A stretch of 23,625 nt of DNA from a virus: positions 1-23,625 of IMG/VR virus record IMGVR_UViG_3300008448_000658, one strand, 5' to 3'. The position numbers and the translations under genes are program-made. The notes under the pieces were generated by a model. That model did not search any database and was not told where the DNA came from. It saw nothing but the letters and a program-made list of their open reading frames with translations. This document shows positions 2 through 22,456 of this stretch, one piece after another; positions within the stretch are counted from its first letter, which is position 1; each line of letters opens with the position of its first letter.

Positions 2-607
2 CTTAGTTTCAAACTCTTTATCAAAGAAGCCAAAGAACATCATGTCCATGTATCTTTTATGGGAGCCAGTCCAAACACCCACATGGGCCACAATGACGTA
101 TTTGATACCATGGGAAAACAAGGCCCAAGTTTCGTTGGTCTTTCAGGTAAATCTACCGTTTTCTCAGACTCGGAAAGATCAGAGATTGCTTCAAGACAAA
201 CAGGCGGTAAGATAGACTTTAAAGTAGAAAAAACAGCAGGCCAAACGGTCGGAAGAGCCTGGGATTCTCTTGGCAAAAAGCCTGGAAAAAGAGTTCTAAA
301 TCTTCATTTTGGTTATGATCAGGCAGGACCTGGTAAAATTGCCGAAAACCTTAAAAAATCTGTCGAGGCTGGTAAAATCCCCGAACTTAATGGTGGCAAG
401 TTTGATGAAGTTCACATTCATTATCCAGAAAATGTTGGTCGTCCCCATGGCTTATCTGGAACAAATATGCGTCTTGCTGCAGCAAATGGCGACTTAAAAA
501 CATATCGTGAACATGTTGGTAAAGGTTTCTCTGAAGAAGAAGTTAAAAATATGATGATCAGAACTCAAGAAGCTATCAAACGCGGATCTCTACCACTTAA
601 ACGTTAG
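2..607 (+). CDS. Putative capsid-targeted internal virion protein (5' partial)
   Basis: The reading frame is open to the left edge, so the gene is cut at its 5' end, probably by only one or two codons. Its first visible residues, LSFKLFIKEAKEHH, resemble the T4 capsid-targeting peptide MKTYQEFIAEA, and IKE/A fits the T4 prohead-protease cleavage rule (L/I-x-E). The remaining ~190 residues are soluble, Gly/His/Lys-rich and without membrane segments; I recognise no enzyme motif in them. The ATG at 59 is internal and would delete the targeting-like peptide, so I do not use it as the start. The gene sits directly before a large helical structural-type gene. Inference: an internal head protein delivered with the DNA. 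Function is otherwise unknown. Confidence 0.7.
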   Translation, partial: LSFKLFIKEAKEHHVHVSFMGASPNTHMGHNDVFDTMGKQGPSFVGLSGKSTVFSDSERSEIASRQTGGKIDFKVEKTAGQTVGRAWDSLGKKPGKRVLNLHFGYDQAGPGKIAENLKKSVEAGKIPELNGGKFDEVHIHYPENVGRPHGLSGTNMRLAAANGDLKTYREHVGKGFSEEEVKNMMIRTQEAIKRGSLPLKR

Positions 608-654: not shown

Positions 655-2046
655 ATGGCCAACGAACCTAGAATCTACAAAAAAGGAATTCCTACAGCTT
701 GTTCAGGTGGTTCAATGCCACCAACGATACCAGTTTCAAAAAAGAACAACGTTAATACTGTGAGAATTAACATAGCTGATGAGTATGTTAACGAGAAATC
801 AAAGGGTGATGAATACGAATATGATTATGAGGGTGATATGGCTATGTCACAGCTCAAGAGCATCATGATGAATGCCAAACAGCTTCATGATATGTTAGAG
901 CCAAATACCAATTTACCTGAATGGGTTCAATCTAAGATTACCCTCGCTAAAGATTATATCGAGACTGCACGTGATTACCTGCAAACTCAGATGAACGAAG
1001 AATTTGTTACAGAAGCTGTTAAGTTGCCGCCACAATATATAAAAAGGGGATATACGGCTGCTAGAAGAGCACACGGTGGTGGAATGACCAAAGCTGATTG
1101 GGAATCCTTTGATGACGAAACAAAATCAAAAATAAAAAGACATGCTATGGCTATTGCTTTCTCTTTACATAAAAAAGCAAAAGCGGAGGCCAGAAAGAAC
1201 AAGAAAGTTGAGAAAGTTAAGAAAGAATCGATCGAAGAGGGTCGCGCTCTTACTTTCCAGCAGAGACTCGTCAGATCTCGCCAGATGAGAAGAATCGAGC
1301 CAAAGGTTTATCGTGGCCAGATCCGTTATCAAGATCGAGTTCCCTCTCAAGCCAGGCTTGAGAAAAGAGCCGAAAGAATGGCCAGAAACCTCATCAAGAT
1401 GAGAATCTCCCACACTCCTTATGATCAGATGAGCATCCCTGAAAAGATTATGATCGACAAGATTCTTGAAAAGAAACAGAAGGCAATCAAGAAACTGGCA
1501 CAGAGACTTCTTCCAAAGGTAAGAAAGATCTCCATGCAGAGAATCTCTGGTTCCCAGATTCCAATGCAGACAGTACAGTATCAGTCGACTGATTATGACG
1601 ATACCCTTTCAATGATCGAGAGCAAACTCTCCAACGTTGAAGATAATAATCTAAAGGAAAGCCTACAGACCATTATCGCTCTTTCGACAAACGAAGAAAC
1701 GGCTGCAGTACAATCACTCAGAAAGAAAGCTGATGTTGCTAAAGTTTCCTTTGAGGAAATCGTTTCGGTATACGCAGAGGCTGTTTCAGAATATACTCCA
1801 CAGAAGATTACATCTGAGCAGTATGCCTTTAATGCAGTAAATAGCTTTGTTTCGAATAAAGTGAATCAACTGGCAGAGAATATGTTTATTGGACCACAAG
1901 GTATCTTAGATATCGGCAATAGAGTTGCTGGTTTTGTTGGCGCAACAGGTATCAAGAATGCTATCCCAGTAGCCACAAAGGTTGCAGTGGATTCAGCTAA
2001 AACTACTATGGCAACTCTCCGTAGTAAAGCAAAGGAGAAGAAGTAA
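655..2046 (+). CDS. Large helical virion-internal/core-type structural protein
   Basis: A 463-residue protein, very rich in Lys, Arg and Gln, with no membrane segment. Three blocks can be seen. Residues ~63-112 (SQLKSIMMNAKQLHDMLEP...LPEWVQSKITLAKDYIETARDYLQT) match a short helical segment I recall from small structural proteins of T4-like marine phages. Residues ~199-295 are a strongly basic helix-rich block beginning ALTFQQRLVRSRQMRR. Residues ~300-463 form a helical tail ending in Gly/Ala-rich and basic sequence. IEE/G at 193-196 fits a prohead-protease site between blocks one and two. The start has AAGGA eight bases upstream. The basic block uses more CAG, ATC and CTC codons than its flanks, so the protein may be mosaic. 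Inference: a DNA-associated or head-core protein. Confidence 0.75.
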   Translation: MANEPRIYKKGIPTACSGGSMPPTIPVSKKNNVNTVRINIADEYVNEKSKGDEYEYDYEGDMAMSQLKSIMMNAKQLHDMLEPNTNLPEWVQSKITLAKDYIETARDYLQTQMNEEFVTEAVKLPPQYIKRGYTAARRAHGGGMTKADWESFDDETKSKIKRHAMAIAFSLHKKAKAEARKNKKVEKVKKESIEEGRALTFQQRLVRSRQMRRIEPKVYRGQIRYQDRVPSQARLEKRAERMARNLIKMRISHTPYDQMSIPEKIMIDKILEKKQKAIKKLAQRLLPKVRKISMQRISGSQIPMQTVQYQSTDYDDTLSMIESKLSNVEDNNLKESLQTIIALSTNEETAAVQSLRKKADVAKVSFEEIVSVYAEAVSEYTPQKITSEQYAFNAVNSFVSNKVNQLAENMFIGPQGILDIGNRVAGFVGATGIKNAIPVATKVAVDSAKTTMATLRSKAKEKK

Positions 2047-3904: not shown

Positions 3905-4294
3905 ATGTTTGTTATTCTTGATGATTCAAATTTTGTGATCTTTGCTGCGAAACACTATGACAACCCCCAGTGTTTGAATACCAGCGAATTTGTTGAAGAT
4001 CTGAATCGATTCAAGTATATCAAGAAACTTCTTAACAGATACCACGAATATGGTGAACTGAAAGAAAGACTTATATTAAACCACCTGATCGTTTTATATA
4101 ACTGCTTTGATCAAGAAACGACCAGAATGCTTTTCGTCAAGATGCCAAATTATTATCAGTATCTGAAACCTTTTGTTGTTTATCTAAATAGACTACCAGA
4201 TAAGATTGAGAATATTGGTTCAGATAATAACACGATACTTACTAGTGATATCATTATGGATGAAAAGATCGTAGAAGCATTAAGGAGTCTGTGA
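3905..4294 (+). CDS. Conserved T4-like phage protein of unknown function
   Basis: A 129-residue, mostly helical protein with the string NRFKYIKKLLNRYHEYGELKERLILNHLIVLYNCFDQETTRMLF. I recall this pattern from a small protein family widespread in T4-like marine phages, usually in structural or replication-adjacent clusters (possibly the family called DUF7207; the name is from memory). There is no signal peptide, membrane segment or catalytic motif. It begins two bases after the previous stop, and its stop overlaps the next start (TGATG). Confidence 0.7.
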   Translation: MFVILDDSNFVIFAAKHYDNPQCLNTSEFVEDLNRFKYIKKLLNRYHEYGELKERLILNHLIVLYNCFDQETTRMLFVKMPNYYQYLKPFVVYLNRLPDKIENIGSDNNTILTSDIIMDEKIVEALRSL

Positions 4295-5019
4295 TGAAGC
4301 ATTGGTCTGAAAACGAAGATGATCTTGTCGTATATCACGGAACGCATATTAGAAATGTTTCAGATATTCTAGAGAATGGTATCAAAAACAAAGATCCCAG
4401 GACAGGCATGGTTTCTGTTGCTATTGGAGATCGTGGCAAACAAGTTGCTAAAGCGTATGCTGCTATGGCTGGTGCTGGTGGGGAATATAATTACCGTACA
4501 GCAGGTCAAAGACCTGTAAATGTACCGCCTGAACATAGAGCGGTAATAGTTGCTCATCTTCCTATGTATTGGGTCCGCCAAAATGTTGATACAACTTTTG
4601 GTGGTAATTCTGATGCAGTCAAAGAAAGACTAAGAAACCCTGCAGCACACAATGCATTTGTGGCTAAAAACGGTGAAGATACTAAGTATGATGAAACCAT
4701 GGAATTAAGATTCAGCAAGCCAATTCCTCATGAGTTTATACAAAAAGATAATAATGAAAATACTAAATATGTTACTGGAGAATCAAAGGAACAACCAATG
4801 AAAACGTTCAAAGAATTTGTTGAAGAATCCCTTTCCGAAGAAGTTCCAACAACTTCAGCAGGAGGTGGTGGAGATTCAAAGATTAAAAACTTTGACCCAG
4901 TCTTAAAATTTAATAATATTGTGTCAATGTTAAAAAGAAGACCACTAGAAGATACGTTTAATAATGACCCCAAAACACGCAGAAGATTGTCAAGCATCGG
5001 CGTCCCAGGACTACCATAA
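4294..5019 (+). CDS. ADP-ribosyltransferase-like protein with internal capsid-targeting-like motif
   Basis: I choose ATG 4294, which has AAGGAG at 4282-4287 six bases upstream and overlaps the previous stop; GTG 4291 is only three bases from that SD. The product has 241 residues. Residues ~11-152 show the layout of an ART/PARP-like fold: VYHGT (H15), then ILENGI, a VSVAIG strand, AKAYA (Y55), and near the domain end METLRF-like MELRFSKPIPHEFI (E137 region), together resembling the H-Y-E triad. Residues 169-183 read MKTFKEFVEESLSEE, close to the T4 capsid-targeting peptide, and LSE/E is a possible prohead-protease site. A Gly-rich linker and basic tail follow. T4 packages its own ADP-ribosyltransferase (Alt) in the head, so the pairing makes sense. 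The ART assignment is by pattern only. Confidence 0.6.
   Translation: MKHWSENEDDLVVYHGTHIRNVSDILENGIKNKDPRTGMVSVAIGDRGKQVAKAYAAMAGAGGEYNYRTAGQRPVNVPPEHRAVIVAHLPMYWVRQNVDTTFGGNSDAVKERLRNPAAHNAFVAKNGEDTKYDETMELRFSKPIPHEFIQKDNNENTKYVTGESKEQPMKTFKEFVEESLSEEVPTTSAGGGGDSKIKNFDPVLKFNNIVSMLKRRPLEDTFNNDPKTRRRLSSIGVPGLP
4798..5019 (+). CDS. Possible nested start producing a separate CTS-type protein
   Basis: The ATG at 4798, inside the ART-like gene and in frame with it, begins MKTFKEFVEESLSEEVP, which is where such a motif normally begins a protein. AAAGGA lies seven bases upstream (4785-4790), a good ribosome-binding site. Use of this start would give a 73-residue internal-head-type protein ending in a basic tail. 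The alternative is simple fusion, with only the long product made. The sequence allows both. Confidence 0.35.
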   Translation: MKTFKEFVEESLSEEVPTTSAGGGGDSKIKNFDPVLKFNNIVSMLKRRPLEDTFNNDPKTRRRLSSIGVPGLP

Positions 5020-11515: not shown

Positions 11516-12898
11516 ATGTCACAGATACTTGCAGAGCTAAAAGAACGCCAAGCTGATGCCTCAAACGAGCAGAGAGCTCTTGAAGAATCAATTAAAACCA
11601 AAATTAAAGAAATGCACGAAGCAGAAAATAGATATAATGCTCGTTTAGAACGAGAACAAAACGAAATCGAAAAACTCAAACAAAGAATACAAGTTCTCTC
11701 AAAAAGATCCCAAGAATTGAATATTCTATCCGACATGGCTTCTGGTAAGATACAAAATACTGTTGAGGTTATCAAGGAAGTCCCTATCGAGGTTATCAGA
11801 GAAGTAACTGTCGAAGTTCCTGGCCCCGAAAGAATCGTTGAAGTCGTTAGAGAAGTTACTGTTGAGGTTCCAGGACCAGAACGTATTGTCAATGTCGAAG
11901 TTCCTGGCCCCGAAAGAATCGTTGAAGTTATTAAAGAAGTGACCGTTGAGGTTCCTGGACCTGAAGTTGTTAGAGAAGTTACTGTTGAGGTTCCTGGACC
12001 CGAGCGTATCGTCGAGGTTCCTGGTCCAGAAGTTATCAAAGAGGTTGAAGTTATCAAAGAAGTAACAATCGAAGTTCCTGGCCCTGAGCGTATTGTCAAT
12101 ATTGAAGTTCCTGGACCTGAAAGAATCGTTGAAGTTCCTGGTCCCGAAGTTGTGAAAGAAGTTGAAGTCATTAGAGAAGTTCCAGTTGAAGTAATCAAGG
12201 AAGTTCCAGTTGAGGTTATCAAGGAAGTTCAAGTTCCAGTTGAAATCCTGAAAGAAGTTCCAGTTGAGGTTATCAAAGAGGTAACTGTTGAGGTTATCAA
12301 GGAAGTTCAAGTTCCAGTTGAGGTTATCAAGGAAGTTCCAGTAGAAGTGATTAAAGAAGTGACCGTTGAGGTTCCTGGACCTGAAGTCATCAGAGAAGTT
12401 GAAGTAATCAAGGAAGTTCCAGTAGAAGTCATCAAGGAAGTCCCTGTTGAGGTTATCAGAGAAGTAACCGTTGAGGTTCCCGGACCTGAACGTGTTGTTG
12501 AAGTTCCTGGACCCGAAAGAATCGTTGAAGTTATTAAAGAAGTAACAGTCGAAGTTCCTGGACCAGAACGTATTGTCGAGGTTATCAAGGAAGTCACCGT
12601 TGAGGTTCCAGGACCAGAACGTATTGTTGAAGTTCAGGTTGAGGTTCCAGGACCTGAGCGGTTTATCAATGTTGAAGTTATCAGAGAAGTAACAGTCGAA
12701 GTTCCTGGACCAGAACGTATTGTTGAGGTGATTAAAGAAGTTCCAGTTGAGATTGTCAAAGAAGTTCAAGTTCCTGTTGAAGATACCACACAAATCACAC
12801 AACTACAGGAACAAGTTGCTGCTCTTCAAGAGTCACTCAATAAGGCTCTAAATCCACCACCAGCTGAGCCAGTAGCAGATCCCGCTCCACCACAGTAA
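11516..12898 (+). CDS. VPV/VPGPE repeat protein, putative filamentous virion or envelope component
   Basis: A 460-residue protein in three zones. Residues 1-80 are a charged coiled coil (heptad-like Leu/Ile spacing, MSQILAELKERQ...IQVLSKRSQELNILSDM). Residues ~83-422 are almost purely two alternating modules: V-P-V-E-V-I-K-E and T-V-E-V-P-G-P-E-R-I-V-E, with 16 copies of VPGPE by my count. Residues ~423-460 are a second short coiled coil (ITQLQEQVAALQESLNKAL) and a Pro/Ala tail. The alternation of Val with Glu/Lys predicts extended beta structure, exposed and rigid. Eukaryotic articulins and alveolins have similar VPV-type repeats, which is a resemblance in composition and not proof of common descent. 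The late promoter implies a virion role such as a fibre or whisker. Confidence 0.85.
   Translation: MSQILAELKERQADASNEQRALEESIKTKIKEMHEAENRYNARLEREQNEIEKLKQRIQVLSKRSQELNILSDMASGKIQNTVEVIKEVPIEVIREVTVEVPGPERIVEVVREVTVEVPGPERIVNVEVPGPERIVEVIKEVTVEVPGPEVVREVTVEVPGPERIVEVPGPEVIKEVEVIKEVTIEVPGPERIVNIEVPGPERIVEVPGPEVVKEVEVIREVPVEVIKEVPVEVIKEVQVPVEILKEVPVEVIKEVTVEVIKEVQVPVEVIKEVPVEVIKEVTVEVPGPEVIREVEVIKEVPVEVIKEVPVEVIREVTVEVPGPERVVEVPGPERIVEVIKEVTVEVPGPERIVEVIKEVTVEVPGPERIVEVQVEVPGPERFINVEVIREVTVEVPGPERIVEVIKEVPVEIVKEVQVPVEDTTQITQLQEQVAALQESLNKALNPPPAEPVADPAPPQ
11762..12781 (+). repeat. Degenerate tandem repeat encoding VPVEVIKE and VPGPERIVE modules
   Basis: About 1.0 kb of in-frame repeats with units of 24-36 bases. 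The protein repeats are nearly identical, but the DNA copies differ at synonymous positions; VPGPE is written gttcctggacctgaa, gttccaggaccagaa or gttcctggccccgaa. This suggests selection on the protein with enough DNA drift to limit recombination. The bias also creates long false ORFs on the minus strand. Confidence 0.9.
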
Positions 12899-14396: not shown

Positions 14397-14804
14397 TTGG
14401 CACATGTACTGGAACACAAACACCTAATTGTTCGGGCTAAAATGAACAAACCCCCCACTGATGAAAATGAATTCAGCAACTGGATGCTAAGGCTTATTGA
14501 TGCCCTAGACATGGAGTTGTTCATGGGTCCTTATGTGAAATATTCATCTATGCATGGCAATCAGGGACTTACTGGAGTGGCAGTAATCTCAACAAGCTCT
14601 ATCACCGCCCATTTCTGGGACGCAGTGTCTCCAGGGCTCGGTCAAATTGACGTTTATTCTTGTAAAGATGTTAATCCTGAAGTTGTATTCGCAATGCTCC
14701 AGGAATTTGAACCAGTCGATCTAGATTATATCTTTATTGACAGGGATATCGAAGATAGCCTTGCTGTTGTTGGTAGCGGAAAGATCGACTTCAAAGCAGC
14801 TTAA
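14397..14804 (+). CDS. SpeD-like (S-adenosylmethionine decarboxylase family) protein
   Basis: A 135-residue protein, the usual size of class 1b SpeD. The N-terminal EHKHLIVRAKM matches the family's first strand. GLTGVAVISTSSITAHFWD aligns with the SpeD self-cleavage motif: S67 as the pyruvoyl-forming Ser, H72 as the processing His, and C89 (QIDVYSCKD) as the catalytic Cys. The residue before the Ser is Thr instead of Glu, and the His after it is Ser, so processing and substrate may differ. SpeD makes decarboxylated SAM for spermidine; I recall that some SpeD relatives act on ornithine or arginine instead. Start TTG 14397 is the only one that keeps the first strand; AAGGA is 11 bases upstream, which is a weak point. 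Confidence 0.72.
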   Translation: MAHVLEHKHLIVRAKMNKPPTDENEFSNWMLRLIDALDMELFMGPYVKYSSMHGNQGLTGVAVISTSSITAHFWDAVSPGLGQIDVYSCKDVNPEVVFAMLQEFEPVDLDYIFIDRDIEDSLAVVGSGKIDFKAA

Positions 14805-21950: not shown

Positions 21951-21958
21951 TATAAATA
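21951..21958 (+). promoter_or_regulatory. T4-type late promoter (TATAAATA)
   Basis: An exact TATAAATA 12 bases after the stop of the small gene and 28 bases before the ATG at 21986. It puts the CTS-type gene in the late class, next to an early-promoter gene. Confidence 0.65.
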
Positions 21959-21985
21959 TATCATAATTCTCAAGAGGAAACTTCA

Positions 21986-22456
21986 ATGAAGACGCTTAAA
22001 GAACATATTGTCAAATCTCTAAGTTCATCTGCTCTTGCTAAACAACTTGATGAAAAATTCTTAGGATTTGGAAAACCGAAGGGTCCTGGACCGTCACTTG
22101 CCAGCTATTATGTTCTCGGACACGCTCATCCAGAAGGTTTGGATTTTTCGAGAGGCACTTATCGAATCAATCTTAGTGCCAAGCATATACAAAGAACCCA
22201 CAAAAAAATAGTAAAAATGATGGGTAAAAGAACTTTGACTAACGACAAGATGAGCAACTTCTCCAATTTCCTCGAGGATAGAGGACATACTGAAAAAAGC
22301 GCATATGATATGGGTGTTAATCACAATAAATTGGGCGCGCATCAGATGGATCATGATGAGATGAGTTCTGACATTAAACAGGATCTCGGACAGTTCAGCA
22401 GAGAGATACCTCCACTAGCAAATGCTTATGGTAGACAAGCTAGACGAACTGCATAA
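21986..22456 (+). CDS. MKTLKEH-type putative virion-internal protein
   Basis: A 156-residue protein. The N-terminus MKTLKEHIVKSLSSSALAKQLDEKFLGFGK resembles the MKTFKEF motif of the gene at 4798 and the T4 capsid-targeting peptide; LDE/K at residues 21-24 would fit a prohead-protease site. The rest is soluble, rich in His, Lys and Met (YYVLGHAHPEGLDFSRGTYRINLSAKHIQRTHKKIVKMMGK), with no recognised fold. GPGPSLASYYVLGHAHPEG faintly recalls the Gly/His style of the partial gene at position 2. AGAGGA lies upstream of the ATG. Probably an internal head protein of unknown function. Confidence 0.65.
   Translation: MKTLKEHIVKSLSSSALAKQLDEKFLGFGKPKGPGPSLASYYVLGHAHPEGLDFSRGTYRINLSAKHIQRTHKKIVKMMGKRTLTNDKMSNFSNFLEDRGHTEKSAYDMGVNHNKLGAHQMDHDEMSSDIKQDLGQFSREIPPLANAYGRQARRTA

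What the first reader, a model, noticed from the sequence alone, without database searches (positions are those of the whole stretch)
4294..5019. ADP-ribosyltransferase-like domain carrying an internal capsid-targeting motif (Alt-like head effector?)
Seen: residues 11-152 have VYHGT, AKAYA and MELRFSKPIPHEFI in ART-like order; residues 169-183 read MKTFKEFVEESLSEE, with a possible L-x-E/E protease site and an in-frame ATG preceded by AAAGGA. Known: T4 packages the ART Alt in its head, and T4 internal proteins start MKTYQEFIAEA. Inference: either an injected effector whose targeting peptide is internal and splits the protein, or two products from one gene through a nested start. An internal targeting motif would be an unusual design.
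Basis: partly seen in the sequence, partly recalled or inferred. Interest (0 to 1): 0.75.

Follow-up and report, generated by a model that had tools for sequence, protein, structure and literature searches.

The report
Capsid-tagged ADP-ribosyltransferase with nested late gene
A virus of bacteria appears to make an enzyme that it packs in its head and injects into the host, but here the address label for the head sits after the enzyme, at what looks like the start of a second small gene hidden in frame inside the first.

Summary
Window 4294-5019 encodes a 241-aa protein. Residues 1-150 fold confidently as an ADP-ribosyltransferase (ART) with an invariant H15-Y55-E137 triad. Residues 169-178 (MKTFKEFVEE) match the T4 capsid-targeting sequence (CTS) at key positions 4, 7 and 10; position 8 is V, not L/I. 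The key evidence is comparative. In most distinct relatives from uncultured phages the CTS is at the N-terminus of the ART (MSFKRWLTE, MLSFSRFITE), and these proteins have no C-terminal tail. Three closely related ARTs (window, L001, L009) lack the N-terminal CTS and carry MK[TS]FKEF after the ART. So the ART is probably a head-packaged effector: it works like T4 Alt but is not an Alt homologue. The internal ATG also looks like a real late gene start. Of about 2,060 plus-strand ATGs in the three contigs, 17 have both TAAATA and a Shine-Dalgarno site; 14 are ORF starts, and the other three are exactly this CTS ATG in the three ART genes. Best reading: one ORF, two products, namely ART-CTS-tail and a nested small CTS protein. 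Packaging, cleavage and enzyme activity are untested.

The parts
4294..5019 (+). ORF of 241 aa: ART domain, then internal CTS, then Gly/Ser-rich basic tail
   Evidence: continuous reading frame also in L001 and L009
4294..4743 (+). ART domain, residues 1-150; invariant H15 (4336-4338), Y55 (4456-4458), E137 (4702-4704)
   Evidence: alignment A2; AlphaFold2 pLDDT about 90 over most of 1-150; fold matches
4762..4805 (+). 44-nt block identical to L001, spanning TAAATA, Shine-Dalgarno and ATGAAAAC
   Evidence: synonymous identity 13/13 inside vs 62/105 elsewhere in the gene, Fisher p=0.002
4764..4769 (+). TAAATA, T4-late-promoter-like, 34 nt before ATG 4798
4785..4790 (+). AAAGGA, Shine-Dalgarno-like site for ATG 4798
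4798..4827 (+). CTS-like motif MKTFKEFVEE (F4, F7, V8, E10)
   Evidence: T4 CTS rules in PMC9026906
4798..5019 (+). putative nested gene: 73-aa CTS plus small tail protein
   Evidence: tail resembles stand-alone CTS ORFs L062 and L078, shuffle p<=0.002
4831..4842 (+). candidate prohead-protease site L-S-E|E (residues 180-183)
   Evidence: sequence; L001 has V-A-E|E in the aligned stretch
2..607 (+). nucleotidyltransferase-like protein with a canonical CTS at its cut-off N-terminus (LSFKLFIKEA)
   Evidence: weak cytidyltransferase PHROG hit
21951..22456 (+). TATAAATA plus Shine-Dalgarno plus MKTLKEHIVK gene: a stand-alone late gene of the same layout

Best explanation
The ORF encodes an H-Y-E ADP-ribosyltransferase that the phage packs in its head and injects at infection. 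In most relatives a T4-type CTS at the N-terminus carries the ART into the prohead core, with an [ILV]-x-E site where the prohead protease would cut it off. In the window's small clade the N-terminal CTS is gone and an in-frame CTS gene follows the ART. That gene keeps its own late promoter (TAAATA), ribosome-binding site and ATG. One locus therefore gives two products: ART-CTS-tail, read from the upstream operon, and a nested CTS-tail protein of 73 aa (88 in L001, 121 in L009). The internal CTS, alone or by assembling with the nested product, brings the ART into the head. Shown here: ART fold, invariant triad, CTS match, its N-terminal place in relatives, and the promoter/RBS/ATG layout. Inferred: packaging, cleavage, injection, use of the nested start, and enzyme activity.
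For: Fold and triad. N-terminal CTS on the ART in most distinct relatives, and none of these has a C-terminal tail. Three N-tagged ART genes lie between neck genes (phrog_211 and phrog_460) in the head-tail operon, and one ART domain is fused to a portal protein. The longest ART-bearing phage records encode T4-type prohead protease and gp23. Nested start: in window + L001 contig + L009 contig, 17 of about 2,060 plus-strand ATGs have TAAATA (-45..-15) plus SD; 14 are ORF starts and the only three inside long ORFs are the CTS ATGs of the three ART genes. TAAATA precedes 54/72 N-terminal MKTFKEF starts but 162/9,281 random ATGs. Stand-alone CTS ORFs with similar tails exist (L062, L078). T4 CTS positions 4 and 7 target, 8 and 10 process; T4 Alt is also processed at its C-terminus; T4 gene 21 has a second start codon (PMC9026906).
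Against: Only three genes form this clade, and two of them share the promoter block by near-identity, so there are about two independent observations. The 8-mer at the promoter is ACTAAATA, weaker than TATAAATA. T4 CTSs act at the N-terminus; none is known here to act inside a chain. The processing positions are weak or lost: V8 in the window, I10 in L001, S8/G10 in L009, with no clear cleavage site after the CTS in L009. Vibrio Ackermannviridae relatives have the ART without a recognisable CTS. The window, G001 and G002 are fragments without gp21 or gp23. No expression or virion data exist.
Confidence: 0.55

Rival explanations
1. Fusion only: one product, ART with a C-terminal capsid tag; ATG 4798 is just a Met codon left from an earlier separate gene.
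For: Open frame in all three members. L015, L021 and L029, which also lack an N-terminal CTS, carry a degenerate CTS-like segment after the ART. Nine internal MKTFKEF cases in other phages lack the promoter; there position 8 is V in 8/9 versus L/I in 73/73 N-terminal cases, as if cleavage were avoided. T4 Alt is C-terminally processed.
Against: TAAATA plus SD at all three CTS ATGs and at no other ATG inside a long ORF; 44-nt block conserved at DNA level.
Confidence: 0.25
2. Nested product only: the CTS serves a small internal protein, the ART is a late intracellular enzyme that is not packaged, and the in-frame overlap is genome economy.
For: CTS at a strong start; tails differ between members as in the diverse T4 internal proteins (PMC3012670); Vibrio relatives lack a CTS.
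Against: Most relatives carry the CTS on the ART itself, so packaging of this ART family is the likely ancestral state; complementarity of N-tag and C-tail.
Confidence: 0.12
3. The motif is a chance resemblance or an assembly fusion of two genes.
For: Short motif; only three contigs.
Against: Same arrangement in three independent contigs; motif rare (2/432 ORFs in a relative); a canonical CTS elsewhere in the window.
Confidence: 0.04

Closest known systems
T4 Alt (head-packaged ADP-ribosyltransferase)
   Same: ART predicted to travel in the phage head; [quoted passage not shown]
   Different: H-Y-E triad instead of Alt's R-S-E (own knowledge); about 150-aa domain; CTS internal and nested; no Alt-family hit in Pfam or PHROGs
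T4 internal proteins IPI-IPIII with CTS
   Same: MKTxxEF[ILV]xE motif with hydrophobic residues at 4 and 7; late-type promoter; variable bodies behind a conserved leader
   Different: In T4 the CTS is at the N-terminus of a separate gene; here it is inside a longer ORF, after an enzyme
T4 gene 21 / gp21s, and lambda C / Nu3 (own knowledge for lambda)
   Same: In-frame nested start that gives a shorter head-assembly product sharing the C-terminus
   Different: Those are protease/scaffold genes; here an injected-effector type enzyme would share its tail with a small CTS protein
Phage ARTs in polyvalent, MuF or portal fusions (PMC9503650)
   Same: ARTs predicted to be head-packaged; one member here (L035) is fused to a portal protein
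   Different: Delivery here is by a short CTS rather than by fusion to a structural protein

Membership tests
ART superfamily | ART fold | tested here: met
   Foldseek Tpt1/KptA E=4e-4 prob 1.0; VIA-align Z 8.5 rmsd 3.1 over 93 aa, with Rhs toxin, diphtheria toxin, DarT and PARP behind at Z 5-6.5
ART superfamily | conserved H-Y-E catalytic triad | tested here: met
   H15, Y55, E137 invariant in 18 sequences
ART superfamily | NAD-dependent transfer activity | not testable with these tools
   needs biochemistry
T4 Alt family | R-S-E class triad and Alt sequence family | tested here: not met
   H-Y-E present; no Alt-family hit in Pfam or PHROGs
Tpt1/KptA RNA 2'-phosphotransferase | N-terminal RNA lobe before the NAD lobe | tested here: not met
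   Only chain residues from about 85 on align; H15 lies 14 residues from the start
T4-type CTS protein | MKTxxEF[ILV]xE with F/Y4, F7, I/L8, E10 | tested here: inconclusive
   F4, F7, V8, E10 in the window (V8 is outside the L/I rule); F4/F7 kept in L001 and L009 but 8/10 not
T4-type CTS protein | CTS at the N-terminus of the product | tested here: inconclusive
   Internal in the long ORF; N-terminal only if ATG 4798 is used
T4-type CTS protein | T4-type prohead protease in the phage | tested here: inconclusive
   Present in the four ART-bearing records that matched, among the longest; the window is a fragment
T4-type CTS protein | present in virion and processed | not testable with these tools
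   needs mass spectrometry

The most novel reading that the evidence does not exclude
An effector and its packaging factor share one reading frame: a nested late CTS protein assembles in the prohead core and, through the identical C-terminal segment of the long product, draws the ART in. Internal CTSs would then be under selection to target without being cut.
Probability: 0.3. Interest if true: 0.75.

Novelty: new variant of a known kind. Interest (0 to 1): 0.58.

Why it matters
It extends CTS-guided effector delivery from T4 to an unnamed H-Y-E ART family in uncultured T4-superfamily phages. It also gives a directly testable case of the targeting signal changing position within a family, with a promoter and start codon nested in the coding frame. 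The CTS plus late-promoter signature could serve to list injected effectors in environmental phages.

Tried and rejected
tblastn of the 73-aa tail, and of L062 and L078, against named phages found nothing useful. A second CTS-led family (L055/L167, MKTFKEF then HYTS...VYTTP) looked ART-like by eye, but no Pfam or convincing PDB relative was found and its model was poor (mean pLDDT 49), so no ART claim is made. The 44-nt block alone is not decisive, since another gene has a run of 19 identical codons. Generic sigma-70 scanning was no better than shuffles. The C-tail motif in L015/L021/L029 is degenerate and is given little weight. No further clade members were found by two more scans.

Full report
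The gene. The window is a 23.6-kb IMG/VR virus fragment with genes typical of T4-superfamily phages: a DNA primase family member (phrog_451), DUF7207 (phrog_407), an exonuclease, a spanin. The gene overlaps the DUF7207 gene upstream and is followed by the spanin gene.

The enzyme. Single-sequence Pfam matches are weak (PARP E=0.005), but across 18 relatives PARP, Tpt1/KptA and ART-PolyVal recur, and H15, Y55 and E137 are invariant. AlphaFold2 with those 18 sequences gives pLDDT about 90 for most of residues 1-150, a helix at 172-181 over the CTS, and a disordered tail. The PDB matches are headed by ART-superfamily folds: Tpt1/KptA first (Foldseek E=4e-4; Z 8.5, 93 aligned, rmsd 3.1), then Rhs toxin TreTu/TreX, diphtheria toxin, DarT and PARP13 at Z 5-6.5. 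It lacks the Tpt1 N-terminal lobe, and its triad is not the R-S-E type of T4 Alt (own knowledge for Alt).

The tag. In T4, CTS residues 4 and 7 drive targeting and residues 8 and 10 drive processing (PMC9026906). Distinct ART relatives from IMG/VR begin MKRFTQYIKE, MRSFKSFIKE, MSFKRWLTE, MLSFSRFITE, MLRFSQFITE, MLTFKQFLLE, MITFKQYLRE or MRSFKQFLSE: 19 of 33 rows match the strict pattern, with L011 and L032 close to it. In a 155-kb relative only 2 of 432 ORFs start this way, the ART and its next-but-one neighbour. In L010, L013 and L025 the ART gene lies between neck genes (phrog_211 and phrog_460; L013 judged by its similarity to L010). In L035 the ART domain follows a portal domain in one protein. 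Four ART-bearing contigs, among the longest, encode T4-type prohead protease and gp23. That phage ARTs are often head-packaged has been proposed (PMC9503650); the CTS on this family adds a route.

Position of the tag. Window, L001 and L009 form one clade (100/100) nested among N-tagged ARTs. They start directly at the ART and carry MK[TS]FKEF after it. No N-tagged ART has such a tail. A second group (L015, L021, L029) also lacks the N-terminal CTS and has a tail with a weaker CTS-like segment, so the tag may have moved more than once. Internal CTSs exist elsewhere: 9 of 82 MKTFKEFxEE sites are inside fused ORFs without TAAATA, 8 of them with V at position 8, against L or I in 73 of 73 N-terminal sites; the nine are mostly one family. 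In the three ART genes the targeting residues F4 and F7 are kept while the processing residues vary (V8/E10, I8/I10, S8/G10).

A nested start. Window and L001 share 44 identical bases over TAAATA, SD and ATGAAAAC, with synonymous identity 13/13 against 62/105 elsewhere in the gene (p=0.002); taken alone this is modest. Stronger is the scan of all plus-strand ATGs in window, G001 and G002. 17 of about 2,060 have TAAATA at -45..-15 plus an SD. Fourteen of these are ORF starts, and the remaining three are the CTS ATG in each of the three ART genes. L009 reaches the same layout with different DNA and a different linker. In other phages TAAATA precedes 54 of 72 N-terminal MKTFKEF starts and 1.7% of random ATGs. 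Tails beyond the CTS differ strongly between members, as in T4 internal proteins (PMC3012670), and the window's resembles stand-alone 56- and 62-aa CTS ORFs.

Judgement. I put about 0.8 on the ART being a head-packaged effector family, about 0.7 on ATG 4798 being used as a late start, and about 0.55 on the full-length protein being targeted through the internal CTS. None of these steps has experimental support yet.

Noticed in passing
window 2-607: Nucleotidyltransferase-like ORF cut by the contig end that begins LSFKLFIKEAKEHH, a canonical CTS with an I-K-E|A site.
   Followed up: partly
window 655-2046: 463-aa protein with an internal EEFVTE|A site and long stretches nearly identical to L001; looks like a basic head-core polyprotein (phrog_23027).
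   Followed up: partly
window 11516-12898: 460-aa protein made largely of EVPGPERIVEV / VEVIKEVPVEV repeats (tandem DNA repeats), preceded by TATAAATA; function unknown.
   Followed up: no
L167-L180, e.g. L167 2001-2549: A second family with N-terminal MKT[FY]xEF[ILV]xE followed by HYTS...GF...VYTTP, possibly another CTS-tagged effector; the model was too poor to judge.
   Followed up: partly
L082 6286: MKTFKEFLEESS fused to a HAD-like FDIDDTLF domain: another possible CTS cargo.
   Followed up: no
L009 3636-4001: Gene just upstream of the ART holds an internal LLSFSDFMAE|S CTS-like segment.
   Followed up: no
L035 2138-4846: One protein with portal, ART and inorganic-pyrophosphatase domains.
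   Followed up: partly
window 14397-14804: S-adenosylmethionine decarboxylase-like gene (phrog_3125, E=4e-14), a possible auxiliary metabolic gene.
   Followed up: no
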